From Halolamina sp. CBA1230 (GTDB taxonomy: Archaea; Halobacteriota; Halobacteria; Halobacteriales; Haloferacaceae), in the NCBI RefSeq assembly GCF_002025255.2, contig NZ_CP054587.1, forward strand, positions 868,001-932,000: 64,000 nt of DNA, read 5' to 3'. A model generated the notes under the pieces. That model saw nothing but the letters and a program-made list of their open reading frames with translations, was not told where the DNA came from and did not search any database. Position numbers and translations under genes: made by a program. Positions 9,592 through 26,000 of the stretch are shown here, one piece after another (within the stretch, counting starts at the first letter, position 1; every line of letters starts with the position of its first letter).

Positions 9592-10665
9592 TTACTCTAC
9601 CGTCGCTTGCAGGGCTTCCAGTTTCTCGATCGCGGCGTGTACCTCATCACGAAGATCGTCAGCCGACTCGCCCGACTCTTCCTCCTGCGCTAACTCGCTC
9701 AACAGCGTCGCCCCATCCGCATCAACTGACTCGTCCGTAGCGTCACCGCCCCACGTTTCCGTCTGACTGTCATCGTCACCGTCCTCCGCGACGGCGTCGA
9801 GGCGCTGCTGTGCATCTGCGTCATCCTCGTCTGCCTCACCAGCACGATTCGCGTCCTGGTCTTGGGTGTCTGTCGGTGGTCGCCCGCCGCGACTGAACGC
9901 GTCCAGCGGGAAGTCGAACGCGTACCCGCGGTTCGCCTTGTAGAACGTCGAGCGGCGCGACACACCCAGCACATCCATGATGGCGTCCCGATCACACCCG
10001 CGGTCAACCGCCCGCCTGACCTGCTCGTCCTCCATGCGCTGCAACAACAACTGGTCGTCGTCCGGGATGTGCCCGCGCGCGGACACGCCGACCTGATCGA
10101 CGAGTCCCCACTCACCGGTCTCGACGTCCTTATCGACGAGCTGCTGCTCACGCCCATCGACCTGGTTATCGAGCCCCATGAGCACCCACAGGCGTTCCCT
10201 GACAGAGGACACGGTCAAGTCCGCCGTGAGTGCAGCGGCGATCTCACCGGTTCGCGCCGGCCCCTCGTCTGCCAGCACCTGCAGAATCTCGATGTCTTGG
10301 GAGAGCAGCACCGTCCGATCTTCTTCCGTGAGCCGCACCGGCGCGTCAGTCGGGTCCACCTGCTGGTGCAGCCACTTGTGACACGGCCGGCACATGACCG
10401 TCAAGTTCTCCTCGTCGTGCTCGTCCATGCCGGCAGGGTCCCGCTCGATGTGGTGGACGTGCAGCGCTGCGAGGCCGCCTTCCTCCGGGCCACGCCGCCC
10501 ACAGGCCTGGCATCGATGCGAGTAGTCGTCGAGGACAGCGTCGCGCGTCGCTGCCGGCACCGACTCGTGACACGCTTCGTGGTCCTCGTGGTCTCGATGT
10601 CCGTCCGCCTGCGTCGGTGATGTGTCTGTACTGCCGTCGCCTGAGTGTCGTGACTGTGTTGGCAT
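9592..10665 (-). CDS. HNH endonuclease with C-terminal regulatory region
   Basis: This 357-residue protein has an HNH nuclease domain at residues 50-100: zinc cysteines C52/C55 and C92/C95, catalytic HHI at 71-73, N87 and H96, in the pattern HVHHIERDP...NLTVMCRPCHKWLH. A winged-helix-like region follows at about 120-170 (LSQDIEILQVLADEGPARTGEIAAAL), then an HTH-like SRRSTFYKANRGY segment and a long acidic tail. HNH enzymes nick or cut DNA using a metal ion. It lies 169 bp downstream of the HRAMP-like operon on the same strand. It may be that system's effector nuclease, although the gap allows an independent promoter. Confidence 0.85.
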   Translation of the reverse strand: MPTQSRHSGDGSTDTSPTQADGHRDHEDHEACHESVPAATRDAVLDDYSHRCQACGRRGPEEGGLAALHVHHIERDPAGMDEHDEENLTVMCRPCHKWLHQQVDPTDAPVRLTEEDRTVLLSQDIEILQVLADEGPARTGEIAAALTADLTVSSVRERLWVLMGLDNQVDGREQQLVDKDVETGEWGLVDQVGVSARGHIPDDDQLLLQRMEDEQVRRAVDRGCDRDAIMDVLGVSRRSTFYKANRGYAFDFPLDAFSRGGRPPTDTQDQDANRAGEADEDDADAQQRLDAVAEDGDDDSQTETWGGDATDESVDADGATLLSELAQEEESGESADDLRDEVHAAIEKLEALQATVE

Positions 10666-10834: not shown

Positions 10835-11509
10835 TCATGGATCTCGTGTCGGTGTCAGCGACTTAACTCGGAACTCTGATTTCGCGCAGTACCGTTCCGC
10901 GACGCGCCCGAGCGCTTTCGTTCGGAGCACGTCCGCCACGTTATGTCGGACGAGCTCGTCGAACCGCCCGTCCTCGAACGCCGCCACTGCTTCTTTGCTG
11001 TCGTCGAACGGATCCAGTTCACAGTACGGCCCGTCACACAGGACCGTGTACGCTCGCGCCAAGTCGGTCACCGCGTCGCCGTCAACGGTCGTGTTGAACC
11101 GGTCCGACACTACGGGCAGCAGGTCAGCGTACGCGACGTCGTCAAACGGCCACGGCAACCCGACACGCGCAAACCGCGTTCGGAGGAACGGGACGTCGAA
11201 CCCGCCGCTCCACGTCTCCCCGTTGAACGCGACCAGCAGCACGTCCCGCCCGCAACACCGTTCCGCCACGAACGACGACACCGCCGCCAACAGGCCCTGC
11301 TCCGCGGAATGCGTAGACACGTTCACAAGCGTCCCGGCGTCGTCCTCGATACCCGCTGTAACGTCGTCGCCAACTGTCTCCACCGGTCGCCCGCCCGTCT
11401 GAAGGAACACGCGGACGCCCATCGGCACCGCGAAGCCAACAACCGTCACTTCGTCATCGACATCGAACCCGGTCGTCTCGATATCGAACGCGACTTGCTC
11501 CAACACCAT
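10835..11509 (-). CDS. DnaQ/RNase H-fold 3'-5' exonuclease of HRAMP-like operon
   Basis: This 224-residue protein has all three motifs of the DEDD exonuclease superfamily: ExoI DIETTG (residues 9-14), ExoII FNGETWSGGFD (about 93-103) and ExoIII HNVADV (about 188-193). The last fits the YN..DV form of RNase_H_2/YprB-type enzymes with Tyr replaced by His, and Hx3D spacing. Such enzymes remove nucleotides from 3' ends of DNA or RNA with two metal ions. The start is the ATG at 11509, which overlaps the stop of the Cas5-like gene (TGATG), so the two are translationally coupled. It is a strong candidate for the nuclease of this system. Confidence 0.85.
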   Translation of the reverse strand: MVLEQVAFDIETTGFDVDDEVTVVGFAVPMGVRVFLQTGGRPVETVGDDVTAGIEDDAGTLVNVSTHSAEQGLLAAVSSFVAERCCGRDVLLVAFNGETWSGGFDVPFLRTRFARVGLPWPFDDVAYADLLPVVSDRFNTTVDGDAVTDLARAYTVLCDGPYCELDPFDDSKEAVAAFEDGRFDELVRHNVADVLRTKALGRVAERYCAKSEFRVKSLTPTRDP

Positions 11510-12486
11510 CACGCATCACCCCCCGCACGCCCCTCTCCACGTCCCGGCACACGGTCCGTCCCGGCCGGCCTGACACGCAGCTCGCCGAACCCGAATCGAG
11601 AGTGCGTGCCGACCCGCGTCACCCCGTTCTTCGCCGTCCGTACCGGATCCGACCCGGCGTACGCGACGACCTGCCCGTGATCCACCGTCTCGACAGCGTA
11701 CGACGCATCACCGTCAACCAGCCGCGTCTCCCGCCGACGTAACTCCTCGCCGCCCGGCGACGCCTGGACTGCATCAGACTCCACACGCCACCACCACGGC
11801 ACGTCCTGCGCATCAGCCCCGGGCTGCTCACTCGCCAGCACGTACGGCGTCACCAACTCGATCTCGACCCCGTCGTCAGCGTCTTCCAGCCGCGAGTAAT
11901 CCAACGCGTCCAACTCGACGAGTTGCGTGTCCGCCACGGAGAGTTCACCGAACCCGTAGTTCCGCGCGCCGCCGACACGAATCCCGTCCAGCACGTCCGT
12001 ATCGACCGGCAGGATACCATCGTCGTCGCCGGCCCCGTCGGTGTCGGCGTGCAGGTAGCAGTGCACGTACCACGACACGGACCGTCGGTGATCCCGCAGC
12101 TCCGCCGGCCGGCCGAACCAACACGTGTCAGCGAACGCCACGTGGTCCCCGTGCTGCTGCACGTCGAGCACGTTATGCGCGTCGCGCGGCCGTGACGACA
12201 GTAACCAGCGCTGCGCTGCATCCCGGAACACGAACAAATCATCGTACGACCGAACCTCCGGGAGTGACTGCCCGAGTTTCCCCGCATACCCGTCCTGTGA
12301 TGCCGCCGCCGGGAACTCACCGTACTCGCCCGGGAGGAACACGCCGTGACTCACGTGCAGCGAGCGCCGCGTCGCCGCATCGACACGCCGCGCAACCGCG
12401 TTGAACAGTGCGTTCCCCGTCACAAAATACGGGTGCCCGAGGTACTGCGCCTCCAGTTCGAACAACACTTGCTGAATCCGCGTCAC
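11509..12486 (-). CDS. Cas5-like RAMP protein (HRAMP)
   Basis: This 325-residue protein shows two glycine-rich RAMP loops: GGARNYGFGEL at about residues 170-180 and GTHSRFGFGELRVRP at about 289-303. Such loops follow the last strand of RRM-type domains in Cas5/Csm4/Cmr3-like proteins and contact the 5' handle of a guide RNA. The N-terminus QQVLFELEAQYLGHPYFVTG is also typical of a Cas5-type first strand. It starts with GTG in a GTGA overlap with the preceding gene. The assignment to the haloarchaeal HRAMP system rests on gene content and these loops. A Cas6-like role is less likely but not excluded. Confidence 0.82.
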   Translation of the reverse strand: MTRIQQVLFELEAQYLGHPYFVTGNALFNAVARRVDAATRRSLHVSHGVFLPGEYGEFPAAASQDGYAGKLGQSLPEVRSYDDLFVFRDAAQRWLLSSRPRDAHNVLDVQQHGDHVAFADTCWFGRPAELRDHRRSVSWYVHCYLHADTDGAGDDDGILPVDTDVLDGIRVGGARNYGFGELSVADTQLVELDALDYSRLEDADDGVEIELVTPYVLASEQPGADAQDVPWWWRVESDAVQASPGGEELRRRETRLVDGDASYAVETVDHGQVVAYAGSDPVRTAKNGVTRVGTHSRFGFGELRVRPAGTDRVPGRGEGRAGGDA

Positions 12487-13307
12487 CGCCGCTCACCCCC
12501 ATCTGTGCTGCCGTCACGTCCGACCGGTTGTGCTGGCGTGAACGCCGCGACGTACTCCTCGATAAACTGGAGCGCCGCCGACCACGACCGGATCCGCCGC
12601 AACTGCGCGTCTAACACGCGCCACCGCCGCGACCCGGCCACGTCGAACGGGATCTCAGGCAGGCGCGACCACACGTCCGCGAACGACCGCGCCGGCACGG
12701 CACCGAGTCGCGCCGCCGGCCGCCCGTCAGGGTCTCGCGTCACGTGCAGTGTGAACGCCGACGTCGCCAGCACCGTACGATGCGGCACCACGGCACCCCC
12801 TTCGTTTCCACTGCGTGTCACCGCGAGCCACAGGTCCTCGAACGCAGCGCCGGCGCGGTAATTATCCAACAGCGCCGCCGCCAGCACCGTGTGGTACTTC
12901 ACTGACGTGTACGGGTAGTACGGCGATTCACTGAACGCCGCTGGCAGCGACGCCGACAACCACGCCGCATGCAACTGGTCGGCGTCGTCGAACCGCAGCA
13001 ACTCCCGTAGCGACGCATCGGCAGCCGCCGGCGACACCGGCTCCCCAGTCAACAGGGAGAGGCGTCGCCACGACGCGTGCGCATCCACCGTCTGCTCCGG
13101 ATCCCCACGGGGCCGACTCAACAACGCCGCATCCACATCCGCACCCGCCGGCACCGGCTCGTTCACCGGCACGCCATGGACGCACTCCGCCGCGTGCTCG
13201 TGCGCCCGCGACCGGAGCTTGTGGACGTCGTGCCGGTACACCGCCACCATCGGCTCAACCGACACGTCACTGTCTGCATCGTCGCCAGCCGCCGACGCCT
13301 CACGCAT
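12483..13307 (-). CDS. Uncharacterised conserved HRAMP-operon protein
   Basis: This 274-residue protein has no nuclease motif or zinc site that I can see. It contains a conserved-looking core PYYPYTSVKYHTVLAAALLD and several Arg/Trp-rich segments (SRRWRVLDAQLRRIRSWSAAL) that could bind RNA. The ATG at 13307 is chosen because longer forms would add a basic, non-halophilic extension and overlap the upstream gene far more. It overlaps the upstream gene by 8 bp and the Cas5-like gene by GTGA. By position it corresponds to the additional uncharacterised protein of HRAMP loci, possibly a large- or small-subunit analogue (inference). Confidence 0.75.
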   Translation of the reverse strand: MREASAAGDDADSDVSVEPMVAVYRHDVHKLRSRAHEHAAECVHGVPVNEPVPAGADVDAALLSRPRGDPEQTVDAHASWRRLSLLTGEPVSPAAADASLRELLRFDDADQLHAAWLSASLPAAFSESPYYPYTSVKYHTVLAAALLDNYRAGAAFEDLWLAVTRSGNEGGAVVPHRTVLATSAFTLHVTRDPDGRPAARLGAVPARSFADVWSRLPEIPFDVAGSRRWRVLDAQLRRIRSWSAALQFIEEYVAAFTPAQPVGRDGSTDGGERR

Positions 13308-13644
13308 CACGATCACCTTGACCAGTATCGTTGTCACCAGCGTCGCCCGCATGAGCCGCATCGTCGTCGCCCGACGCCGCCTCCCGCTCCTGCGCCGTGC
13401 GTAGATCAACTTGCGGTTCCGCCAACGCATCTAACTCCTCACGCTCACCCGCGTCACCAGCAGCTGCATCCGAACAGCCACACGCACAGTCACCATCACT
13501 CGACGCGACACGCTCAACAGCCGCTTCGCGTTCCTGCACCGTTCGCAAGTCTGTCTGTGGTTCTGCCAGTTCCTCCACCGCCTCATTCACAGTACACCGT
13601 GACTCGTCACCCGCCGACGAGTCATCCGCACCGCCGTCAGTCAC
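13300..13644 (-). CDS. Small acidic repeat protein within HRAMP operon
   Basis: This 114-residue, very acidic protein contains two near-identical 17-residue units, LAEPQTDLRTVQEREAA and LAEPQVDLRTAQEREAA, separated by a CACGCSD-containing linker that could bind a metal. Its GTG start forms a GTGA overlap with the end of the Cas7-like gene, and its 3' end overlaps the next start by 8 bp, so it is translated as part of the operon. The repeated amphipathic unit may dock two copies of a partner. I know of no described family. The low complexity makes homology hard to judge. Confidence 0.65.
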   Translation of the reverse strand: MTDGGADDSSAGDESRCTVNEAVEELAEPQTDLRTVQEREAAVERVASSDGDCACGCSDAAAGDAGEREELDALAEPQVDLRTAQEREAASGDDDAAHAGDAGDNDTGQGDRDA

Positions 13645-14618
13645 GCCCCATCACCCCTGTCTTCACCGTCAGTATCACCGTCCGGGACCGGCACGTCACC
13701 ATCGCGTTTGGCGACCCGTGCCTGCAACGCTTCCACGAACACTGGGCGGTACGCCGACCGCCACGTCTCGTCTTTCTGCTCCATCGCCGTCGTCGCCGCC
13801 TGCCCGCGGTGAAACACGCGGCGCACCTCCTGTTCAGTGTAGAGTGGATTCACGATCCAGGCGTCCGCAATCCCCGCACCGAAGTTCCGCGCCCCACCGA
13901 TCTGGAACGCGTACTCATCACTGTGCGCGTCGAGGAACGACACCGCTTCCACAAGCAGCCCGACGAACTCCGGTTTCAGGTCTCGCAGCGTCAGCTTCCA
14001 CGTCCCCTCGACGTTCCCCAGCACATCCCGCTGGGCGTGCCGCAACGGCTGCCCGCCGTCCGCCGCATTCCGCGAGCGCACTTGGTTCGACACTTGGCGG
14101 AAATGCGCTTCCGCCTCACCATCCAACACATCGACGTTCCGGCGAATCGGCGAGAACGACACCGGGCGGCGCAGCAGCTTCCCCGGCTGATCACCGAACC
14201 CGCCGAACACGTCGTACACGACACACCCGGCATCGTGCTCGTCAAGACACGCACCCTTCTCGTGATACCCGGACTCCAAGTCACGGTCGTACACGTCCGC
14301 ACGCATGAAGTCCGCATTCGCCTCCCCAGGATGACACGCCGTCGCCCCCGCAATCTGCACCACTTCCTCACACCCGTGCCGCAACCAGCCACTCAGGGTG
14401 AACGGCGAAATCTGCCCCTCGATCTGATTCATCGGGTCATCCGCCTCGTACCGGTCCGCAGACGCGTGATGCCGGTCCGTCACAACCCCATCACCAGGAG
14501 CCAACAAGTCGATTTCCAGCCCGACGTACACGTCCGGGAACAGCAAGTCCTCAGCAGTGTCCGGGAACGCGACGTCACCCGGCAAATGCGACGCATCCAG
14601 CACCTGCTCGCGGGTCAT
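13641..14618 (-). CDS. Cas7-like RAMP protein (HRAMP)
   Basis: This 325-residue protein has the hallmarks of a Cas7-family backbone subunit. It has an early segment ISPFTLSGWLRHGCEEV (about residues 70-86), like the iPGSSLkGalR motif. It also has a central FGGFG and a glycine-rich RAMP loop GGARNFGAGIADAW (about 238-251). Cas7 proteins polymerise along guide RNA. No DEDD or HD nuclease residues are evident, so cleavage would need a partner. It overlaps its neighbours by ATGA upstream and GTGA downstream. The absence of Cas10, Cas8, Cas1/2 and any array nearby fits the derived HRAMP type. Confidence 0.85.
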   Translation of the reverse strand: MTREQVLDASHLPGDVAFPDTAEDLLFPDVYVGLEIDLLAPGDGVVTDRHHASADRYEADDPMNQIEGQISPFTLSGWLRHGCEEVVQIAGATACHPGEANADFMRADVYDRDLESGYHEKGACLDEHDAGCVVYDVFGGFGDQPGKLLRRPVSFSPIRRNVDVLDGEAEAHFRQVSNQVRSRNAADGGQPLRHAQRDVLGNVEGTWKLTLRDLKPEFVGLLVEAVSFLDAHSDEYAFQIGGARNFGAGIADAWIVNPLYTEQEVRRVFHRGQAATTAMEQKDETWRSAYRPVFVEALQARVAKRDGDVPVPDGDTDGEDRGDGA

Positions 14619-15151
14619 CGCCGCTCACCTCCACGGAACGCATCATGTCGCTCGACAGCCGGTCGCGTCCCGCACCGTTCCGCACGAACGTTCAATACCT
14701 GCTCAACCAACGGAACCGGGCCATTCGGTTCACCACTCTCAGTGCCAGCACCTGCATCAGTGTCCTGAACTGGGAATTCAGTCAGTGACTGCGTCGCCGC
14801 CGTACTCACCCCCACCACCGCAGGCGCAAGCAACACCGGCCACGCCGACTGCGTCACCACATCCGAACACCAGCCAACACGGCCCGCAACAACGAGTTCC
14901 CGCACACCAAGCGTGAACTCCTCCGGATGATCGTGCCGGCCACCACCACACATTACGTACCCCAGCTGAAACACCGGCGCTCCAGCCGGGCGAAACACGT
15001 ACACCGCAACCGCATCTCCCTCGGACAAGGAAGAACCGCACACTTGACACGTCGCGGCCCCCACTCCGAGCGAAATATTATTTATTTGATGTATTTCTTC
15101 AATAGTCGGCCTGCCGCTGCCTTCTTGTGTTTCAGGGTTTGAGTTTTTCAT
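14615..15151 (-). CDS. Zinc-binding protein, first gene of HRAMP-like operon
   Basis: This 178-residue protein has an N-terminal zinc-site candidate CQVCGSSLSEGDAV with later cysteines (YVMCGGG, GWCSD), and a WPVLLAP motif seen in proteins common on haloarchaeal plasmids. The C-terminal third is variable. It ends in an ATGA overlap with the Cas7-like gene, so it belongs to the operon. Whether it is part of the RNA-guided complex or an adaptor is unknown. The 5' leader carries the inverted repeats described at 15172-15235. Confidence 0.7.
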   Translation of the reverse strand: MKNSNPETQEGSGRPTIEEIHQINNISLGVGAATCQVCGSSLSEGDAVAVYVFRPAGAPVFQLGYVMCGGGRHDHPEEFTLGVRELVVAGRVGWCSDVVTQSAWPVLLAPAVVGVSTAATQSLTEFPVQDTDAGAGTESGEPNGPVPLVEQVLNVRAERCGTRPAVERHDAFRGGERR

Positions 15152-15171
15152 GGGTTCTCACGCGGCATTTT

Positions 15172-15235
15172 GAACCCAGCCTGGGTGCTGCAACACCCAG
15201 GCACTTCTGCTCAACTGTGCCCGAGGGCTGGGTTC
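15172..15235 (-). promoter_or_regulatory. Overlapping, mutually exclusive inverted repeats in HRAMP leader
   Basis: GCCTGGGTG (15179-15187) pairs perfectly with CACCCAGGC (15194-15202). GAACCCAGCC (15172-15181) pairs perfectly with GGCTGGGTTC (15226-15235). The two stems share bases, so only one can form fully at a time. They begin 21 bp upstream of the first start codon of the operon. They could be an RNA switch/attenuator or several binding sites for one regulator. Confidence 0.55.
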
Positions 15236-15239
15236 GCAT

Positions 15240-15314
15240 CCATTAGTCAGGGAGCCATTGGTAAATACCTTTGGACAATTGACTAATGGGGTGTGTCCCA
15301 GTAGTCATTAGTGA
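15240..15314. promoter_or_regulatory. Putative operators between HRAMP operon and winged-helix gene
   Basis: CCATTAGTCA (15240-15249) and TGACTAATGG (15280-15289) are a perfect 10-bp inverted repeat with a 30-bp spacer. A third near-copy, CATTAGTGA, lies at 15306-15314, 22 bp before the winged-helix start at 15336. A TATA-like GGTAAATACCT lies between the first two sites. The arrangement suggests cooperative binding by the divergent regulator at a shared promoter. Confidence 0.55.
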
Positions 15315-15335: not shown

Positions 15336-15566
15336 ATGGGAAGTCGGGACCGTGATGAGGAAAGCGGGCAATTCACCGAGGAATACCCGCGTGAGGACTT
15401 CTTAGAAGCTCTTAAAGAATTCGGTCCTGCAGGAACAACCGATATCTCAAATAAGGTGGGTTGTGACAGAAGAACTGCGTATCTGAAGCTTCAAGCACTC
15501 GAAGAGGAGGGTGTGATAGAAAGTCAAAAAGTTGGGAACTCTCTCTTGTGGGAGTTAGCAGACTAA
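15336..15566 (+). CDS. Winged-helix DNA-binding protein, likely HRAMP regulator
   Basis: This 76-residue protein is a single winged helix (FLEALKEFGPAGTTDIS, CDRRTAYLKLQALEEEGVI, then a short wing). It is the type found in many haloarchaeal plasmids and viruses. It is divergent from the HRAMP-like operon and shares its intergenic region, which holds three copies of a CATTAGTCA-like site. Local repression of the operon and of itself is the simplest reading. The gene is less GC-rich than the operon, as is its neighbour at 15574. Confidence 0.8.
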   Translation: MGSRDRDEESGQFTEEYPREDFLEALKEFGPAGTTDISNKVGCDRRTAYLKLQALEEEGVIESQKVGNSLLWELAD

Positions 15567-15962: not shown

Positions 15963-18900
15963 CTATTCTACACGGGGTGCCCGTGAAAGCCACTCCAGAA
16001 CAGTCTGTTCCGCGCTATCAGGTGATGGGACCGACTCGGTTCCGCCGAGCAAGTTCTTTACAGATTCGTTTGTTGATGCTGGCTGTACGACCTCCGCTGT
16101 TTGAGTGTCGTCTACGTGGTCCGCCGTGGTCACTTGAGAGCCGCTCTTACCGTGGGTCCCACACACGAATTCAAGGATATCTGACTCATCGGCTATTGCA
16201 TCGTTGATAAGAGCTTCAAACAGCGGGTCGCCTGGTAGTAAGAGTCTGATTGACGGATACGACTCCGAAATTTCTGGATCGAACGTAACTACTAGTCCCT
16301 CTCCTCCGAGTTCTGCCTGTGCGGTTTCTGTGAACGAGTCGGCAACGGTTATCCGGTCGAGATCGGGTGTATGAAGCACATAAGCGTCATCGATCACGCT
16401 GGAGAAATCATCCTTCCGTTCGTGATTTCGCAGTGCAGTAAATTCCCAACCAGCCTCCTCAAGACGGGTGCTCTGGGTCAGAAGTGTTTCAATCGTTCCG
16501 AGATCAACTAGGGGTTCGTACGCTCTATCTTCACTTCCGACGCTCTCCAGCGCGGGATGGCAGTATGGCTCCCATCCGTCAAGTCCAGAACTCTCGATAA
16601 TTGCCTCACGTGTCGTCGCTGAATCGGCTTCGTCTTCCAGACCTGTCTCTTCCGCTTTTTGTTGTGCTTGTTGCGCCTTGTCGTCGGCCTTCTGAACTAC
16701 CTGCTCTGCAGACTCATTTCCGTCAGTAGTTCCACCCATGACGGCGTTTTTGATGTCTGACTCAATACTGTTCAGAACTGGTCGCATTGGCCCAACAACG
16801 TTCTCGAACAACTGTAGTCGCCCCTCCAACTCCTCGTAGATGTCCCCGTCAATACTGTCTTTGTACGCGTAGTTGATGATCTTCACAATCTCGTTTTTCT
16901 GCCCGATTCGGTCGATGCGTCCAATTCGCTGTTCGACACGCATCGGGTTCCATGGTAAGTCGAAGTTGATCAGTGCGTCAGCTGTTTGGAGGTTGAGTCC
17001 CTCACTTGCGCTGTCGGTACATATTAGAATATTGGTACTTCCTTGTGTGAAATCCCGCTTGATTTCCTCTTTGCCAACGTTATCCCACTCTCCAGTATCG
17101 ACGTCGTATCGCATTCCACCCTTCCCACTGTAGGTCCCGACGTGAGGGTGGGTATCTGTGAGCGTTTCTCGAATATGCTCTAGTGTGTCGTGATACTGGG
17201 TGAATATGATGATGTTGTCCTTCGCGTCTTGACGTAGTTCCCGGATATCACGTCCTAACTGGGCGACCTTCGGGTCCGTGTGGGCACGATCAAGGTCATC
17301 TACGAACTCTTGGAGGGCCGAACGCTCGGCACGGATTACACTCGCAGCTTCACCGCTGCTGGGGCGGTAGGCGTCAAGTGATTCTTGCCCGATTGTTTCG
17401 TCGATGGTGGCTTCGGTCACGCCAGAGTCCTTACTGAGCTCTGAGACCTCCTCCGTTAGGTCTTCGACTTTACCATCGAGCTTCTCCATACGCCGCTTGA
17501 GACTCTGTCGGATTGCGTGGAGGCTGCTTGTTAGCCGCTGGCGGTACGTGGTCATCACGAACCCGAGGGCGAGTTTTTCTTTCCCAGTGAGTACCTTCTG
17601 TGATTGCTTGTAGGTCTCGTCGATGTACTCCTCGACTTTGTCATATAGCGGCTCTGCATCGCCCAGTTCGATTCGAGTAGTTTCTACGTCTCGCGTCGGG
17701 ACCGTGTCATCGAGTAGGTCGAGTTCTTGGCACTTCTCAAGGACAGCACGAGTATTCCGGAAGATTCGTGATTGAACTGGCGTGGCCCACTGGGAGGCTT
17801 CTACAAGTGCCTTCCACTCTACCGGGCCAAGATCGAACATCAACGATGTCGGGTCATCCAAACGAGAGGATGTCTCACGAACACCGAGTAATTTCTCCAG
17901 CGCTTTGCGCTGCTGAATCGAGCCAGTATCAGTTTCTTCGATCACCTCTCTCGCTTGGTCGCCGTATCCAGGGTTCGACTGGATGTGCTCATGGAGTAGT
18001 TCCCCGAAACGTTCGAGCTTCGGCCGGCCTTCGTTTTCTTCGAGGTCGAGTTCCTCTTGGAAGCGCTTCAGTACCTGCTGCCGTCCATCGGTGACACTCT
18101 GATAGCTCTCGTCCACTGTTTCAAGGCTTTCTCCGAGGGCTCGGCGTGTTTCGAAGAACTCGACGAATCGTTCCTTGTTGTCCCACTCCTGCGGTAAGTC
18201 GCACAGTCGGAGAAGGTCGTATAGTTCCCCCACATTGAGTTGCATGGGCGTCGCGGTGAGAGCGTATAGACAGCGGGAGACGTCCTCCGTTTGGCCGAGT
18301 AGGTCGTACAGCTTTGTTCCTTCTCTCGCGCTGTGTGCCTCGTCAACGACGGTGAGGTCCCAGATTTCGTCGTCTATCTTTGGTGCGACGTGTGACTGGT
18401 TTCCCTCCATCCGTGCGGTGTGCCATGATTCAATGACTACTGTCGGCTGGTCTCGCTGTGTGACGAACGATCCAATCGGTGTCTCTTCCCAGTTTGCTGC
18501 ATCGACGTTCCCTGAGATCGGGATTTGGTCGTCGCTTTGGGTTCCGAGAGGGCCGACCATGTAGTCGCCGTCGTATGAGCGTTCGTGGTAGTATGCGTGT
18601 ATGTTGAATCGGTCGAGTAGTTCTTCTTGCCACTGCTGAACGAGGCCTGCAGGAACAAGGAATAACGCGTTCTCGACCTGTTCGGTCTGCATCAACCGTG
18701 AGAGGGTGATTCCCGCTTCGATGGTCTTCCCTAGTCCAACTTCGTCACAGAAGAGGAGGTTATTCGGGTAGATACTGACTGCTGTATCGGAAATCGTGCG
18801 CTGATGTGGCCACGGTGTGACGGTGCTGATTTCTTCTGCGAGATGCATCCCCCCTGGGGTGCGCCCGGCGAGCGAGACGACGCTTGCAGTATCGTTCTCC

Positions 18901-19592
18901 GGAACGATCGTCTGTGAGTTGTGATTTTGAACACGTTCGACGTGTTCGTCGAGTGTTCCATCGGTGTCCTTCCAGTCGATCAGGTCTTGGCGAGCAGCCT
19001 CGTCCAGTTCATAGACATCGACTGACGGGTGGAACCCGTTCCAAAGTGCGTTGAATGTCGAGACGTCTTCCTCGACGTACTTCGCTTCGCCTTGGTTCCA
19101 CGAGCGGTGGACTTTGAATCGCTCATAGTTGTACTGCCATGCGCTCAGGGTCTCATTGATGCTTCCTTCAAAGGTGAGCGTGTTGCCGTCACCATCGACG
19201 CCGATACCGAGTTTTGGGTGGAAGAGTCCGTCACCAGCCTTTGGGTCGCCGACCTTGATCTGGAGGTCGCCCCGATCTAGGAGCGTCGCAATAATCTTGA
19301 GTTGGGATTCGACCCACGGTTCAAGCGGCTCGTCAGCGTCGGGGAACATCGCCCCTTTCTCTTGTTCTTGGAGGTCCGCACCGGCGATGACGCGGACGGT
19401 ACCTCCAGTTTCGAGTAGGGAATCGACGCCCTCTAGCGCATGTGCGAGGCTCCGAAGACTCAGGTAGCCCGCCAGTCGGTCGTATCTGATGACCTCATCG
19501 AGAAACGGTTTGTAGAACGTCTCCATGAGGGTCCGGTTGCTCCGGAACTCGCTCTCGTATACCGGGTCCCACGGGACGTCCTGTAAGCTCAT
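15963..19592 (-). CDS. PLD nuclease - SNF2/Superfamily 2 helicase fusion
   Basis: This 1209-residue protein combines two activities. An N-terminal phospholipase-D-type nuclease domain has H125-P-K127 (HPKLGIGVDGDG) followed by GSIN at 143-146. A SNF2-type helicase follows, with Walker A DEVGLGKT (283-290), VVDEAH (about 412) and motif VI RIGRIDRIGQ (about 900). A coiled-coil, charged C-terminal region comes last. It would translocate on double-stranded DNA and cut it. It is the last gene of a four-gene operon, and its ATG overlaps the methylase stop (TAATG). The gene set is typical of a DUF1156/DUF499 candidate defence module related in logic to DISARM. Confidence 0.9.
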   Translation of the reverse strand: MSLQDVPWDPVYESEFRSNRTLMETFYKPFLDEVIRYDRLAGYLSLRSLAHALEGVDSLLETGGTVRVIAGADLQEQEKGAMFPDADEPLEPWVESQLKIIATLLDRGDLQIKVGDPKAGDGLFHPKLGIGVDGDGNTLTFEGSINETLSAWQYNYERFKVHRSWNQGEAKYVEEDVSTFNALWNGFHPSVDVYELDEAARQDLIDWKDTDGTLDEHVERVQNHNSQTIVPENDTASVVSLAGRTPGGMHLAEEISTVTPWPHQRTISDTAVSIYPNNLLFCDEVGLGKTIEAGITLSRLMQTEQVENALFLVPAGLVQQWQEELLDRFNIHAYYHERSYDGDYMVGPLGTQSDDQIPISGNVDAANWEETPIGSFVTQRDQPTVVIESWHTARMEGNQSHVAPKIDDEIWDLTVVDEAHSAREGTKLYDLLGQTEDVSRCLYALTATPMQLNVGELYDLLRLCDLPQEWDNKERFVEFFETRRALGESLETVDESYQSVTDGRQQVLKRFQEELDLEENEGRPKLERFGELLHEHIQSNPGYGDQAREVIEETDTGSIQQRKALEKLLGVRETSSRLDDPTSLMFDLGPVEWKALVEASQWATPVQSRIFRNTRAVLEKCQELDLLDDTVPTRDVETTRIELGDAEPLYDKVEEYIDETYKQSQKVLTGKEKLALGFVMTTYRQRLTSSLHAIRQSLKRRMEKLDGKVEDLTEEVSELSKDSGVTEATIDETIGQESLDAYRPSSGEAASVIRAERSALQEFVDDLDRAHTDPKVAQLGRDIRELRQDAKDNIIIFTQYHDTLEHIRETLTDTHPHVGTYSGKGGMRYDVDTGEWDNVGKEEIKRDFTQGSTNILICTDSASEGLNLQTADALINFDLPWNPMRVEQRIGRIDRIGQKNEIVKIINYAYKDSIDGDIYEELEGRLQLFENVVGPMRPVLNSIESDIKNAVMGGTTDGNESAEQVVQKADDKAQQAQQKAEETGLEDEADSATTREAIIESSGLDGWEPYCHPALESVGSEDRAYEPLVDLGTIETLLTQSTRLEEAGWEFTALRNHERKDDFSSVIDDAYVLHTPDLDRITVADSFTETAQAELGGEGLVVTFDPEISESYPSIRLLLPGDPLFEALINDAIADESDILEFVCGTHGKSGSQVTTADHVDDTQTAEVVQPASTNESVKNLLGGTESVPSPDSAEQTVLEWLSRAPRVE

Positions 19593-22444
19593 TATTCGTG
19601 GTCGCTGAGTTCAGTTTGGCCGTCTTTCGTCATGTCGATGTGATCGAGGTTGATGTCGAGGTAGTCGCCAGTTTCGCCGGAAACGATGTTGACGAGAGTT
19701 TCACGCATGTCCGACTCAGTGGGTAGAACCTCTAGTAGAGCAGTTATCGTCGCTTCGAATTCTTGGTCCGATTTGAGGTTTCGGTCCGAGAGCCACTGCC
19801 AAGCTGCGCGGGCCCCTTCGCGTTCGTAGACGTGAATCGCGGAGTGGACCGCGTCGATGTTGTAGGTGAATCGAGTGTCGGTCGGGTTGACTGGATACTT
19901 CCGAGAGGATGGGTCCTCAGCATCGTCGCTTTTCAGCATGACGATGTCCTGAACGCGGTCAGTGTGGTCTTTCAGCTGGATGTCCTTCCCACTCTTTCCC
20001 CAGATCTTGGTTGGACGCTTGATGTTGTCAATATCGACGTTGGCAGCGACGCCCAACTGTCGTGCCTCGTCGTAGGGGATGGTGTCGTTCTCGTAGATGA
20101 GCCACGAGAGAATGTACCAGCGCGAGAGCGAGTCGATTTGCTCAATACCGTCGGTCTTGAGGAATCGTTCAGCGAGTACACCCGTAACTGCCTCTCGGGC
20201 CTGACTCAGCGCCTCCCGAGGCCGGATCTCTTCGCCCTTCTTGTTCACGACGGGGTACTCCTCGGCGTACTTCTGCAGCGTTGGGCCGTAGGCGGCGATG
20301 GCCGTGTCCGTCTTCGAGATGTTGTATCCTGAGTCTAAGATATCTTCCGCTTGGTCCCTGGCTGCCTCCCGAATATCGTCTTGTACATCTTCCCAAAGTG
20401 TTCGTCCTGTAGTCTGGTCTTCTCGCTTACGGGCGACGAGGAAGATGGAACTATCTGCGCTCGCTTTCCCCTGCAGTCCGACCCGATCTCCCATTTCGGT
20501 TTTAATCGGGTGGGTGGCAGTAATTGTGAAGCCTGCGTTGATGAGTGCTGAAGTGAGTGTGTCCCAAGCATCCATCTCTCGATGGGTGAACATAACCGTC
20601 ATTATGCCATTTTCCGTCAGGAGGTCTTGTGTCTCTGAGAAAATTTCCTCCATTTTTTCTTCGTAAAACGCGTCGGCCAGCTCATCTTTAGATTGGTCTC
20701 CGTCTGAGATATCTTCAAATCGGGCTGGATTCGCAATTGCCTCGTCAGCCTTATTTGTCAGCTTTTTCTGAAATAGATCTGGATGAATATCCTCTAGATA
20801 TCTTTTTTGCACAACGTAAAACAGATCAGATAGCTCAGCGTACAGAATGCTGCTGTAGTATGGGGGGTCAACAATAGCGATATCTACTGATCCAGGTTCC
20901 CATTTGGATGTTAGCGTTGCTGCATCTTGTGACGAGAGATCTGCAGTACCCGTTGGTGAGAAGGATACTAGTTTCTCGTAAGATTCGATAACGTGGTTTG
21001 TACACCGAGTATAGCCACGTCGTGGCGCAGAGATATTATTATCCCCTGCCATTTTCTTGAAAGCATAATTATTATCAGAGAAGATTTTATCCGGAATTCC
21101 TCTGTCGTCGTACCACTGACTAAGCCGGGAATTAAATGTAATTGTTCTACTTACTGCCAGTGATAAGACTGTTAGAATTGCATCTGCCTTCTTGTCGTCA
21201 TATTCTGATCTGACCTCTTCCTTGTGATCTTCAAATGCAGAATAATATTCATAGTGAGTGACTAGTTGTCGAGGATTGAATATATCGCGCCATTCTTCCA
21301 TTCCCCAATTTGTTGGGTCGTTTATTCGACTACTCACTTCGATCGGTTCGGTAAGGAACGTGAGTAAATCAAAGTCGGACTCTACTCGATCACGCGCCTT
21401 CTCCATACCTCTCCGATCGACCTCGTCACCCGCTCTAAACTGATGTGTCCCATCTTCATTCTCGTAGTTAACACCATAGATGCTATAGTCAAATTCACCA
21501 TTCTTTATTTTTGATTGAAGATCCTTTTTTAGCGTGGGAACATCACAATGTGGACACACTGCATCCCCGCTAGATACTGGACCATCATCGGGGTCATAGC
21601 TATCATCTACGTTTTCCACTTTGACATGTTCGTAATCTACGTCCCCGTTGCTGTATATTGGTCGAATCGCATCTCCACCTTCCGCTGTCTTATCAAGCCA
21701 CCATTTCCCGGTTAGCGGAATATCGCCACCACACGAATCACATTTGATTAGATAGGTAAATGCCGAGTTTAGTATTGTTCTGCCCGGCTTTTTAGTAGGG
21801 AAATACGGCTCTATTGCCTCTGTTGCAGTTTGATGGATCTTATCTCGCCACTCATGTAGCTCCGATTCTATGGAACCGACGTTACGAACATAATCTAGTG
21901 CCGTTTTCATGACTAATGACGGGATCGGATTTAACTCATTTGCTTTTGTGTTAAATCCGTATCTCATCGCCTCAAATGGGATACTCCCACGGCCCGCAGT
22001 TGGATCTAGGATGGTTGGAGATTCACCACCCCATCCATCTTGAATTTCGTTATGAAGACGGTCAATCTCAGCTTTAGTCGGCGTTTGTGTGTTCGGATTG
22101 GGATACCCGTAATGGTCGTCAAGAGTACCGCTAGTTCTAGGCTCAGAAAATTTATTCTCTACAAATTCAGAGATCCCCGACTCCAACGCATTTGGACCCA
22201 CTTGCATGAGTTTCAATAGCTCATCCGGTTCAATAGTACCGGGATATGCTGATGCTATAATTGACAGACGAACAGCGGGTGTAGGACGTGCGGCAAACCA
22301 CTTGTGGAGACTTCGAAGCGGATGATATCGTCCCGACTCCATATCTTTCTGGCTTTCAATGTCAATAGCATTTAGCGGAAGTTTCGATTCGATTGAAACG
22401 GTCTCTGGAACATCTGCATCTTCTATTGGTGTTTTATCAGTCAT
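19592..22444 (-). CDS. DUF1156-family adenine/cytosine DNA methylase
   Basis: This 950-residue DNA methyltransferase has a DUF1156 N-terminus (ESKLPLNAIDIES, then RYHPLRSLHKWFAARPTPA). The AdoMet site is DPTAGRGS (147-154), two zinc knuckles are present (CDSCGG and CPHCD), and the catalytic motif is DPPY (526-529). It probably marks host DNA so that the associated helicase-nuclease spares it. The ATG at 22444 is chosen because upstream sequence in frame lacks the acidic profile and overlaps the DUF3780 gene. The stretch 20.6-22.4 kb is clearly more AT-rich than both flanks, which suggests that part of the gene was exchanged recently. Confidence 0.9.
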   Translation of the reverse strand: MTDKTPIEDADVPETVSIESKLPLNAIDIESQKDMESGRYHPLRSLHKWFAARPTPAVRLSIIASAYPGTIEPDELLKLMQVGPNALESGISEFVENKFSEPRTSGTLDDHYGYPNPNTQTPTKAEIDRLHNEIQDGWGGESPTILDPTAGRGSIPFEAMRYGFNTKANELNPIPSLVMKTALDYVRNVGSIESELHEWRDKIHQTATEAIEPYFPTKKPGRTILNSAFTYLIKCDSCGGDIPLTGKWWLDKTAEGGDAIRPIYSNGDVDYEHVKVENVDDSYDPDDGPVSSGDAVCPHCDVPTLKKDLQSKIKNGEFDYSIYGVNYENEDGTHQFRAGDEVDRRGMEKARDRVESDFDLLTFLTEPIEVSSRINDPTNWGMEEWRDIFNPRQLVTHYEYYSAFEDHKEEVRSEYDDKKADAILTVLSLAVSRTITFNSRLSQWYDDRGIPDKIFSDNNYAFKKMAGDNNISAPRRGYTRCTNHVIESYEKLVSFSPTGTADLSSQDAATLTSKWEPGSVDIAIVDPPYYSSILYAELSDLFYVVQKRYLEDIHPDLFQKKLTNKADEAIANPARFEDISDGDQSKDELADAFYEEKMEEIFSETQDLLTENGIMTVMFTHREMDAWDTLTSALINAGFTITATHPIKTEMGDRVGLQGKASADSSIFLVARKREDQTTGRTLWEDVQDDIREAARDQAEDILDSGYNISKTDTAIAAYGPTLQKYAEEYPVVNKKGEEIRPREALSQAREAVTGVLAERFLKTDGIEQIDSLSRWYILSWLIYENDTIPYDEARQLGVAANVDIDNIKRPTKIWGKSGKDIQLKDHTDRVQDIVMLKSDDAEDPSSRKYPVNPTDTRFTYNIDAVHSAIHVYEREGARAAWQWLSDRNLKSDQEFEATITALLEVLPTESDMRETLVNIVSGETGDYLDINLDHIDMTKDGQTELSDHE

Positions 22445-22452
22445 ATTTATTG

Positions 22453-23073
22453 TTAGAGGTGGTCGGCGAGCAGTACTCGGAGTGCTTTCGTTCCGTTTGG
22501 CGACGACGGTGAGCGAGCTTTGGCGTGCCAGTAGTAGCATTCGCCGAGGCTCATTTGGTCGATGCCTTTGGCGACGGCTCGGAGTTTGTCTCGGCGACGT
22601 ATCGGCTTCATTGTCCGGAAGGCGATGGAGAGGCGTACGCCTGTGCCTTCTGGGAGGCTTACGCTGGCCGGTGCTCCGGTACAGATGATTTGCGGGTCGA
22701 GGTCGATTTCTTTGAACGTCGATTCGATGAGGAAGCTCACTTCGTTGAACGAGTCGCCACGGAGAGTTGCGATTTTGATCGCACACCAACTGTCCCAGGT
22801 GAACGGTCCGCTGTTGTCCGTACCGGGGAGTTCCGAGGGTGACTGGTCGCCGACGATGGCGTCGTTGAGGTCGTAGGTGGTGACGTTCTCTGACTTCTGT
22901 GCTTTGTCGAAGCGTTCCTTCCGTGCGGTAGCGATATCCTCCGGCGCGAGTTCGTACAGGCTGACCTCGTGTTGGTCGTCGATACGTTCCCGTGTGAGCA
23001 CAAACGTCGGGCGGTTGCCGTACGCACCGGTGGTGAACGCGAAGGAGTTCCCTTCGGCGAGCCCTTTGCTCAC
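22453..23073 (-). CDS. DUF3780-like protein
   Basis: This 206-residue protein has a C-terminal pattern MSLGECYYWHAKARSPSSPNGTKALRVLL that, read in two parts, matches my memory of DUF3780. That family is found almost only beside DUF499 and DUF1156 genes. No catalytic motif is visible, and it may be a structural or specificity subunit. It begins with GTG in a GTGA overlap with the DUF499 gene and ends 8 bp before the methylase start, so the three are co-translated. The family name is less certain than the operon membership. Confidence 0.75.
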   Translation of the reverse strand: MSKGLAEGNSFAFTTGAYGNRPTFVLTRERIDDQHEVSLYELAPEDIATARKERFDKAQKSENVTTYDLNDAIVGDQSPSELPGTDNSGPFTWDSWCAIKIATLRGDSFNEVSFLIESTFKEIDLDPQIICTGAPASVSLPEGTGVRLSIAFRTMKPIRRRDKLRAVAKGIDQMSLGECYYWHAKARSPSSPNGTKALRVLLADHL

Positions 23074-26000
23074 GAGCCAGCCACCTCGCTTGCTTCGACT
23101 ACCCGGATCTGAGTGTGCATCGTCACGGTGAACGCGTTGTCCACGGCGAGAAGGTCGTCGATGGCATCGAACGTCTCTTCGTAGAGGTGTCCGTCTTCTT
23201 GGTCGAACTCGATGCTGAAGTCCGCCTCTGCTGTGCGACCACCATCGGGGCTGGAGAGATCCTCCGGCTCCATGTTGAATCGGAGGTGGTCGGCGAACAC
23301 GTCGGGGGTCCCGTTGAAATCGACCTCGAAGACGGATTCGCCGTCTCCATCGTTGGCCTCGTAGTCGAAGTTCATCGTGGTGTGGTCGCCGAACTTCTCG
23401 GAGTTGCTGAGTTTGTTGGCGGTGAACCACGTCCCCTTCCAGGCGTCTGCGCCGTCGATCCGTATCCATACGCCTTCGACAACAGAGGTGAGTTCGTCAG
23501 GATGACCGCGGTATTCCTCGTGTGCCTCGGTAAGCTCGTCGGCGATATCGGCACGCATCTCCTGCAGTGCACGCGAGATATGGACCGGGTCGGACGTTTC
23601 AACCTCGATGAGCCTGCTGAACGATTCGGGCTCGTCGATGTCGTCATCGACGTCGTCGTCGGTATTGTCACCATCGTCGGATTTGCCACCGTCACTCTCG
23701 TCTTCTGGCTCTTCCTCTTCCGGTTCTTCCCAGTCGATTTCGTCTCCGATGTCGGAAACCAACTCGTCGATGGACTTGTAGAGGGCGTGTGACTGCGTGA
23801 GTTTGACGTTCTGGTAGTCAAGCCCACTGGCGAGATTTTCGGCGTCGTCTAGTTCGTGCTCATCAGTCGAGAGCGTGGCATTCGACGTGTGGTATCCTTT
23901 CTGCAAGTCGTCGTCCCAGTACGCGTAGTTGGACTCGGACACCAACTTGGCGATGGTCTTGCGAAGCGGGATCGGTGAGAGGAGGATCTCGGCGTCTTGG
24001 CGCTTGCCGAATTGCTCTTCGAGTGCGCGCGTAGTCATCGACGTCGCGCCGACGTTCCAGATCGTCGCTTCGAACCAATCGACGCCGTACGCCCCTTCGC
24101 CCTCGGGAATGATTGCGCCCGCCTCTTCGAGCTTCTCGATTACGCTCTGGTGGATCGTACTGTCAGTCGTAACGTTCCGGTGTGCGAGGCCGTCGGCGGT
24201 CGGGAAGTACAGGTGCGTGTACGCTTTCTTGATGTCTTGGTCCAGCGTGCCTTTTGCGCTGTCGAGGCGCTCACCGAGTTTGTCCCGCTGTTCTTTGTTC
24301 AGTTCATACTGGTCGCCGAGGTTGTTCTGGATGTGTTTGATTGCGGCGACGCGCTCGGCAGTCCGTTTCGCATCGGTAACGTCGTTTGTGCTAGCTGCGA
24401 GGAAGACAACGTTGTTCTTGTACACCCGCGGCGTCTTCTGCCCACCACTGGAGGACGCCGTGTTTTTGAACAGCGTCTGAATCGTCTCTGGCACGGTCTC
24501 GTAGTCCGAGATCGTGACGGTATCGAAGTCCATCACGCACAGGTGTGCTTCGTCAGCCGTGTCCGGGATCTCGTGGGGCTGTTCTGGACCCACGATGACG
24601 TTGAGGCTACCCTGCCCAAGCGCCGAGTCAAGTGCTTCTTCGAGGTGTCGTCGAGCGAGCCCGTCCTGAAGCTGTTCGACGACGGAATCGACGAGTTTTG
24701 TCAGGTTCGGTTCAGACTTGAACTGGATCTTCTCGCCATTGTCTCCGTGGAGGAAGAAGCATGCAGAACGCCGACCTTCTCCGAGAAGGTTGTTCAGTGC
24801 GTCGTCGTAGTGAGCGAGTTCGACGTCGATATTGGCGACTGCGTGTCGAAGCGGCCGCCGCGTAGTACCGCGGCCTTCGGCACCTTTGACGATGCTCTTC
24901 CAGAGGATGGACGTAGTGAGTTGTGTTCCAAGCGGTGGGTGCCCGTTCTTTATCCAGTCTCGGTCTTCTTCCTCGGCGTTTGCGGTGCCGTCTTCAGAGT
25001 AGATGTCCGCTTTGATCGCCGCCTCGAAGTCCATATCGACCGAGGAGAACAGTCGCAAGAGCGTCGAACGGACGTCGCCATCGGATGGGTGGAGGTCGAA
25101 CAGGCGAACGTAATGCCGTCCTCGTTCGTCATCTTGTCGCTTCCAGAGCCGTGCAACGCCCCGAGACAGGAGTTTGAGTGCTCCACGCGTTCGTTGGAAC
25201 GATGGAAGCGAGTCGAGTTCTTCGGTGAGTGTGTCGATGACGGTCGGGTGAATTGGGTAACTCTCCTTCAGTCGTTCCTTGTGCTCCGCGCTTGCTGCAT
25301 GGTCGGGGAAGGAATCACGATCACCGACGTAGAAGGACGCGTACGCATCGACTGTCGCGTCACGTCCGTCATCGCCAATGTCTTCGAACAACCGGTGGCG
25401 GAGCACGGCAGCGATTTCGCTGTCCTCTGTTGGGGTGATCGAGTCCTCGACACGGTCACTGATGCTGTTGAACTCGGAGATCGTCTCCGAGACGAGCCCT
25501 CGGATGTCTTCGGCTTGGTCGGCGAAGGCTGTGTCCGCAATACTTAGAACAACGGTGACTTTGTCGTTGTTCTGAGTCGCAGACAGCAGCGACATCAAGA
25601 ACGCGTTTGTCTGCTTTGCAAGTGTTGAGTCCCCGATTTCCACGGCTGCAGCTTGCTCCAAGTATGCCGCAATCTCGTCGATGAGGATGAGCGACGGGTC
25701 GTCGTTACGCTCGAACAACCGTTCGAGCTTAGTAGTTCCAGGTGGGGTTCGGTTCTCGTCGTTTTCTCGAAGGAACTCGTACCCCTCACGTCCAAAGAGC
25801 TGATAGGCCATTTCGCCCCACATCGTCTTGGTTGCGGGGGCATCGGCGTCCTCGTAATTCGAACGGGCATCTTCTGCATCTACGTGTGTCCCGACAAAGA
25901 CAGCGGTGTTGACGTCGAGCCCGAGTGCCGCGGCTTCGGTATAGTTGTCAGCGAGTTCTTGATCGTGGATGAAGTCGGAAATATCCGGGACAGCTTCAGG

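What the first reader, a model, noticed from the sequence alone, without database searches (positions are those of the whole stretch)
10835..15151. Array-less Cas5/Cas7-like operon (HRAMP type) with its own exonuclease
Six overlapping minus-strand genes encode a zinc protein, Cas7-like protein, repeat protein, unknown protein, Cas5-like protein and DEDD exonuclease. RAMP glycine-rich loops are visible in two of them. There is no CRISPR array, Cas1/2, Cas10 or Cas8. This agrees with the HRAMP class described by Makarova and colleagues (2019), which are derived class 1 systems with alternative nucleases. Direct biochemical roles are, as far as I know, not established. The complete set here, with coupled start/stop overlaps, is an excellent reference locus.
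Basis: partly seen in the sequence, partly recalled or inferred. Interest (0 to 1): 0.95.

Follow-up and report, generated by a model that had tools for sequence, protein, structure and literature searches.

The report
Array-less CRISPR-like operon with RNA switch
A salt-loving archaeon carries a seven-gene CRISPR-derived operon of the known HRAMP type; one of its 'unknown' proteins has the fold of a miniature Cas10, and its mRNA starts with a previously uncatalogued folded RNA, found in over half of the sampled haloarchaeal genomes, that looks like an on/off switch for translation.

Summary
Six overlapping minus-strand genes lie where stated, and a seventh (HNH, 9592-10665) belongs to the set: all seven recur as a 40-70% identical cassette on a 52.9-kb contig of the same genome and across haloarchaea. 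Cas7 is confirmed by fold (Csm3 and other Cas7 chains, Z about 11) and by profiles (Csm3). Cas5 is confirmed by profiles (Cmr3). The HRAMP assignment is supported. 'No Cas10' is not: the 'unknown protein' (12483-13307) has the fold of Csm1/Cas10 in miniature (all 50 listed PDB entries are Cas10; Z 13.0; 240 residues), with an HD motif and no GGDD. So HRAMP looks like a minimal type III effector (Cas10-Cas5-Cas7) plus DEDD and HNH nucleases. No Cas1 or Cas6 was found in the genome. New: the operon's leader (15149-15237) is a strongly covarying three-helix RNA (20 of 21 pairs with compensatory changes over 106 sequences). The 3' strand of its outer stem also pairs with the start-codon region, suggesting a translational switch. 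No Rfam match. It occurs in 216 of 391 haloarchaeal genomes, often before unrelated small-protein genes, so it is probably cis-regulatory, not the missing guide. Function of both is inferred, not shown.

The parts
15336..15566 (+). Divergent winged-helix (wHTH-like) regulator (76 aa, MGSRDRDEESGQFTEEYP...)
   Evidence: ORF; a divergent regulator of this or another family sits in front of most leaders, in HRAMP and non-HRAMP loci
15240..15289 (-). Promoter/operator: 9-bp inverted repeat CCATTAGTC (15289-15281) / GACTAATGG (15248-15240) around a TATA-like TATTTACC (15267-15260)
   Evidence: sequence; covarying positions around the TATA box in the leader set. Promoter function inferred
15149..15237 (-). 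Structured leader RNA: outer stem P1 (15235-15226 with 15181-15172), middle hairpin, apical hairpin; the P1 3' strand is also complementary to GAACCCATG at the start codon (15157-15149)
   Evidence: CM R1, 76.6 bits, E 3e-19 in window; covariation; alternative pairing
15113..15127 (-). Nucleotide motif CAAGAAGGCAGCGGC inside the ORF (+25 to +39 after ATG), conserved across unrelated proteins; part of the leader element
   Evidence: position-wise conservation in 46 HRAMP and 67 other leaders; found once in window
14615..15151 (-). Gene 1: Zn protein (conserved Cys34, Cys37, Cys67 in the aligned segment), 178 aa
   Evidence: no family match
13641..14618 (-). Gene 2: Cas7 (Csm3-like), 325 aa
   Evidence: AF2 pLDDT 73.5; 8bmw_H Csm3 Z 11.2, Foldseek E 5e-7; PADLOC Csm3 in 35 of 60 members
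13300..13644 (-). Gene 3: small acidic protein with two copies of a motif like (D/E)EL-x-P-x5-LRTAQE, possibly a bivalent tether
   Evidence: same two-copy layout in relatives; function inferred
12483..13307 (-). Gene 4: mini-Cas10 (HD motif YRHDVHKLRSR; no GGDD), 274 aa
   Evidence: AF2 pLDDT 88.5; all 50 VIA entries Csm1/Cas10, Z up to 13.0; Foldseek top hits Csm1, E 0.09; hhalign aligns the HD motif only, not significant overall
11509..12486 (-). Gene 5: Cas5 (Cmr3-like), 325 aa, two glycine-rich loops
   Evidence: PADLOC Cmr3 in 53 of 55 members, best 7e-9; window copy 2.7e-4
10835..11512 (-). Gene 6: DEDD (RNase H-fold) 3'-5' exonuclease, 225 aa
   Evidence: RNase_H_2 3.7e-6; D10, E12, D106, D130 conserved in at least 97%; motif III in 37 of 42 entries
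9592..10665 (-).
   Evidence: Pfam HNH 4e-8; conserved in order in 32 of 38 group-A loci and in the second cassette

Best explanation
This is a group-A HRAMP operon: an array-less, minimal type III-derived ribonucleoprotein system. A Csm3-like Cas7 backbone, capped by a Cmr3-like Cas5 and a miniature Cas10 that keeps an HD-nuclease-like motif but lacks the cyclase motif, most likely binds RNA and detects foreign nucleic acid; the DEDD exonuclease and HNH endonuclease, and perhaps the HD site, do the cutting. The operon is kept in check at two levels: a divergent wHTH regulator acting on operators around the TATA box, and a 5' leader RNA that can fold either with its outer stem closed (start codon free) or with that stem's 3' strand paired to the start-codon region (start codon masked). 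Shown by computation: gene set, folds of Cas7 and mini-Cas10, Cas5 profile match, covarying leader structure and covarying alternative pairing. Inferred: RNA binding, which nuclease acts on what, the source of any guide, defence role, direction and trigger of the switch.
For: Gene set and order conserved. Cas7 fold and Csm3 profiles. Cas5/Cmr3 profiles. Cas10 fold of gene 4 with the HD motif in register with Csm1. Nuclease motifs conserved. No Cas1 or Cas6 found. Neighbouring genes match Hma (15963-26357) and TmtA defence models. Leader: A13, 95.0% of cells paired vs 78.8% shuffled, 20 of 21 pairs with compensatory changes, covariation 0.512 vs 0.197, 0/500 shuffles; alternative pairing covariation 0.177 vs 0.091, 0/500, and own-locus complementarity above every between-locus permutation (0/500; 0/1000 for divergent start regions), whereas four control regions gave no clear excess.
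Against: No guide RNA source is identified. Sequence-level support for Cas10 is not significant. The Cas7 model is of moderate confidence, low in the loop 42-67 that could hold a catalytic Asp. In the single-sequence fold the leader's closed form wins clearly, so the alternative fold would need a ligand, protein or cotranscriptional timing. The evidence for the alternative pairing is weaker than for the helices (83.6% of cells paired vs 78.1% shuffled). No expression or binding data.
Confidence: 0.6

Rival explanations
1. The leader RNA is the missing HRAMP guide or scaffold: processed from the transcript's 5' end, it is bound by Cas7/Cas5/mini-Cas10, and its GGGUUC strand base-pairs with targets such as its own start region.
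For: A leader of this kind precedes every group-A HRAMP operon searched and many group-B ones; CRISPR-like hairpin; pairing to the own start region.
Against: Strong matches occur before unrelated small-protein genes and in many genomes without a detectable HRAMP Cas7: 216 genomes have the RNA against 102 with Cas7, of 391. No hypervariable stretch stands out in the alignment.
Confidence: 0.08
2. HRAMP is a regulatory or housekeeping RNA-binding complex rather than defence.
For: No array, no adaptation genes; the regulator/leader cassette is shared with ordinary small-protein genes.
Against: Two nucleases with conserved catalytic motifs; patchy presence (102 of 391), multiple copies, plasmid copies, decayed copies; Hma and TmtA matches next door.
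Confidence: 0.2
3. Gene 4 is not a Cas10 relative; the match to Csm1 reflects a common helical arrangement.
For: No significant sequence or profile similarity; Foldseek E only 0.09; helical models can reach Z 13 by chance according to the tool's own note.
Against: All 50 listed entries are Cas10/Csm1; the alignment spans 240 of 274 residues; the HD motif sits in the same place; genes for Cas5 and Cas7 flank it.
Confidence: 0.15
4. The leader's conservation reflects a DNA-level function (recombination site for swapping cargo genes, or a cruciform operator), not an RNA switch.
For: The same element stands before unrelated genes, with exchangeable regulators upstream, sometimes several copies in 12 kb.
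Against: G-U pairs are frequent in the helices; loops and start-codon spacing are conserved; the element begins about where transcription should start and the model ends at the start codon in all 67 non-HRAMP matches examined; pairing to the start region covaries.
Confidence: 0.13

Closest known systems
HRAMP (haloarchaeal RAMP; Makarova et al. 2019, FEMS Microbiol Lett fnz079, not held; described in PMC8730458 and PMC12669027)
   Same: Haloarchaeal, array-less, diverged Cas5 and Cas7, associated nucleases (HNH named in PMC12669027), derived from type III
   Different: PMC8730458 calls the remaining proteins uncharacterized; here one of them has a Cas10 fold with an HD motif. The conserved leader RNA is not mentioned in the HRAMP passages of the two reviews held
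Type III-A/B effectors (Csm/Cmr: Cas10-Cas5-Cas7)
   Same: Cas7 matches Csm3, Cas5 matches Cmr3, gene 4 has the Csm1 fold
   Different: No Cas6 or array found; Cas10 reduced from about 750-850 to 274 residues and lacking GGDD; added DEDD and HNH nucleases
ARAMP of Asgard archaea (PMC8730458)
   Same: Array-less CRISPR derivative distantly related to HRAMP
   Different: Most ARAMPs carry a form of Cas1; none found here. Not compared directly
Translational riboswitches and protein-bound autoregulatory mRNA leaders
   Same: Structured 5' leader with mutually exclusive pairings touching the start codon
   Different: No Rfam match; start codon rather than Shine-Dalgarno as apparent target; ligand or protein unknown; a conserved motif also lies inside the ORF

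Membership tests
HRAMP | Cas7-fold protein | tested here: met
   Csm3/Csf2/type VII Cas7 matches, Z up to 11.2; Csm3 profiles
HRAMP | Cas5-family protein | tested here: met
   Cmr3 profiles in 53 of 55 relatives, best 7e-9; fold not predicted
HRAMP | no CRISPR array at the locus | tested here: met
   no direct-repeat array in the window
HRAMP | no adaptation genes | tested here: met
   no Cas1 in the genome, with the search ringing in 9 of 14 control genomes
HRAMP | own nucleases (HNH and others) | tested here: met
   HNH and DEDD genes in the operon
HRAMP | restricted to haloarchaea | tested here: met
   102 of 391 genomes of the class; in the phylum sample all 16 positive genomes are of the same order
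HRAMP | identity with the published HRAMP gene families | not testable with these tools
   the 2019 paper is not held
Type III CRISPR effector | Cas10 large subunit | tested here: inconclusive
   fold match to Csm1/Cas10, no significant profile match
Type III CRISPR effector | GGDD cyclase motif | tested here: not met
   absent from the conserved positions of 69 relatives; present in the Csm1 set
Type III CRISPR effector | crRNA from an array, Cas6 processing | tested here: not met
   no array in window, no Cas6 by PF10040; that family rings in only 2 of 14 controls
Rfam RNA family | match to any of 4227 families | tested here: not met
   none at gathering score; only a chance miRNA hit elsewhere below it

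The most novel reading that the evidence does not exclude
HRAMP is a complete miniature type III effector (HD-Cas10, Cas5, Cas7) that works without an array, and its translation is gated by a previously undescribed haloarchaea-wide bistable leader RNA that extends into the coding sequence and also controls many unrelated accessory genes.
Probability: 0.5. Interest if true: 0.85.

Novelty: new variant of a known kind. Interest (0 to 1): 0.7.

Why it matters
If gene 4 is a Cas10, HRAMP stops being two RAMPs with unknown partners and becomes the smallest Cas10-Cas5-Cas7 set known to me, so its assembly, RNA content and nuclease activity can be tested by analogy with Csm. The leader would be a new class of archaeal cis-regulatory RNA, widespread (216 of 391 genomes) and present in variant form upstream of HRAMP in Halobacterium salinarum, a laboratory model with transcriptome data. 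It also says where not to look for the guide: the most obvious conserved RNA at the locus is probably a regulator.

Tried and rejected
Leader RNA as guide: set aside because many genomes with it lack a detectable HRAMP Cas7. A fourth helix between linker and coding region, suggested by the single-sequence fold: not supported by permutation. PDB profile searches with Cas5, Cas7 and gene 4 alignments gave only chance matches. Cas10 by PADLOC, NCBIfam and hhalign: no significant match. H. salinarum leader missed by model R1 but plain by eye as the GAAGC variant; an alignment of such variants was not modelled further. Literature searches found no HRAMP biochemistry and no report of this RNA in the held library. 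The first seed for gene 4 was out of frame and was redone. The Csm1-family hit in the own genome (C1:537985, 24 bits, below cut-off) matches only the HD part and similar hits recur across haloarchaea, so it is not taken as a Cas10.
Full report
Observation. The six minus-strand ORFs from 15151 down to 10835 are intact, overlap by 4, 4, 8, 4 and 4 nt, and most have the high GC3 typical of haloarchaeal genes. The window is bases 868001-932000 of a 2.9-Mb contig in a 3.47-Mb genome that is 99.9% complete. The same genome carries a second cassette on a 52.9-kb contig, with all genes in the same order, 40-70% identical in protein. That comparison moves the start of the 'unknown' gene to 13307 and adds a seventh gene, HNH, at 9592-10665.

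Distribution. A Cas7 profile finds relatives in 102 of 391 sampled genomes of the class; in a sample of the phylum, all 16 positive genomes belong to the same order. Two groups appear. Group A has Zn protein, Cas7, small protein, gene 4, Cas5, DEDD and HNH: Zn in 38 of 38 loci, gene 4 and Cas5 in 37, DEDD in 32, HNH in 32, at least one nuclease in 37. Group B has Cas7, gene 4 and Cas5 without these nucleases (gene 4 in 30 of 31, Cas5 in 31 of 31). A Halobacterium salinarum plasmid carries a group-B set, with all genes annotated as hypothetical.

What the proteins are. Cas7: the predicted model (pLDDT 73.5) matches Cas7-family chains, Csm3 of SsoCsm best (Z 11.2, 199 residues, rmsd 3.5; Foldseek E 5e-7), and PADLOC Csm3 models match 35 of 60 relatives. 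Cas5: Cmr3 models match 53 of 55 relatives, best 7e-9. Gene 6: RNase H-fold exonuclease with the DEDD residues conserved. Gene 7: HNH with zinc knuckle. Gene 3: an acidic protein with two copies of one short motif in the relatives read, perhaps a bivalent tether (inference).

Gene 4. Its model is confident (pLDDT 88.5, pTM 0.87). Foldseek's leading matches are Csm1 chains, though at E 0.09 and above; the second aligner lists 50 entries, all Csm1/Cas10, with Z up to 13.0 over 240 of 274 residues, starting at Csm1 residue 1. Its invariant R-H-D-x-H-K motif stands where Csm1 has L-H-D-I-G-K, and the profile comparison, not significant as a whole, aligns just this stretch. No GGDD is conserved. 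I take it as a reduced Cas10 with an HD-like site, at about 85%. The reviews held describe HRAMP as Cas5 and Cas7 with nucleases and uncharacterized proteins, derived from type III (PMC8730458, PMC12669027). The original 2019 paper is not held, so whether its authors saw this is not known to me.

Guide source. The window has no array, the genome no Cas1 and no Cas6 by one family (weak control). One solitary sequence one mismatch from a haloarchaeal CRISPR repeat lies at C1:1337995, without a second copy nearby. No RNA partner is identified.

The leader RNA. Upstream of gene 1 the transcript folds into an outer stem and two hairpins. The same architecture precedes the operon in every group-A locus searched, with the start codon at the model's 3' end. 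On 106 sequences 95.0% of pair cells are standard pairs, 20 of 21 pairs show compensatory changes and no shuffle of 500 comes near; the strongest covarying column pairs in an unsupervised scan are those of the helices. The alignment was fitted to the model, which leans it towards the structure, but the first alignment (A7) was made by sequence alone and already showed 13 of 21 pairs with double changes. The 3' strand of the outer stem is also complementary to the bases at the start codon (GGGTTC to GAACCC in the window; GGTTTG to CAAACC, GGTCTT to AAGACC, and in group-B variants GCTTC to GAAGC). This holds beyond what exchange between loci gives (0/500; 0/1000 in the divergent subset) and shows its own covariation, while control regions give no clear excess. 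Conservation continues into the ORF: +25 to +39 reads CAAGAR..Y..CG in proteins that are otherwise unrelated. A TATA-like box within an inverted repeat lies just upstream, placing the likely transcript start at the foot of the outer stem (inference).

Scope of the leader. It has no Rfam match. The model finds it in 216 of 391 haloarchaeal genomes, and in the phylum sample in no listed genome outside the order. Of 67 copies chosen away from detected HRAMP Cas7 genes, a few head HRAMP remnants, and most precede other genes: SWIM-type zinc-finger-like proteins, small proteins with a DEWMAFV-like motif, and others. Different divergent regulators stand upstream in both settings. In the own genome the two strong matches are exactly the two HRAMP leaders, with one weak third match before a cysteine-rich small protein. 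I therefore read it as a cis-acting translational switch used by many accessory genes, HRAMP among them. Which fold is 'on', and what sets it, is inference.

Neighbourhood. 15963-26357 encodes a helicase, DUF1156 methylase and DUF499 ATPase matching HmaA, HmaB and HmaC, and 40399-46347 matches TmtA: the surroundings look like a defence island.

Verdict. A new member of HRAMP in gene content, and a revised picture of HRAMP in anatomy and control. The Cas10 claim rests on predicted structure; the leader claim rests on comparative evidence that I consider very strong for the structure, good for the alternative pairing, and open for function.

Noticed in passing
window 15963-26357 (-): Three-gene set matching HmaA (SNF2/PLD helicase), HmaB (DUF1156 methylase) and HmaC (DUF499 ATPase) defence models, next to the HRAMP operon.
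   Followed up: partly
window 40399-46347 (-): 1982-aa protein matching TmtA (4e-200), a candidate defence protein.
   Followed up: no
window 50453-52774 (+) and 55203-59162 (-): Proteins with weak-to-moderate similarity to LmuB/AriA and to GajB-type helicases.
   Followed up: no
L004 (C4:14000-33000): Second complete HRAMP cassette in the same genome on a 52.9-kb contig, among TnpB-like, IS200-like, Cdc6/Orc-like and integrase-like genes by eye.
   Followed up: partly
L351 1501-1522 (C1:1337995): A solitary sequence with one mismatch to a haloarchaeal type I-B CRISPR repeat, in a genome without detected Cas1; no second copy nearby.
   Followed up: partly
L142, L143: Three to four copies of the leader RNA within 12 kb, each before a small-protein gene, as if the leader were a reusable expression cassette.
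   Followed up: no
leaders of L126-L145, L266-L305: Unrelated proteins behind the leader share similar first 10-13 residues (like MSTNEPSGQE), explained by nucleotide conservation inside the ORF.
   Followed up: partly
L350 4930-5030 (H. salinarum pKBTZ01_286): A GAAGC-type variant of the leader stands before a group-B HRAMP in a laboratory model organism; all genes annotated hypothetical.
   Followed up: partly
window 13300-13644 (-): Small acidic protein carries two copies of one short motif separated by a disordered-looking linker, as do the relatives read.
   Followed up: no
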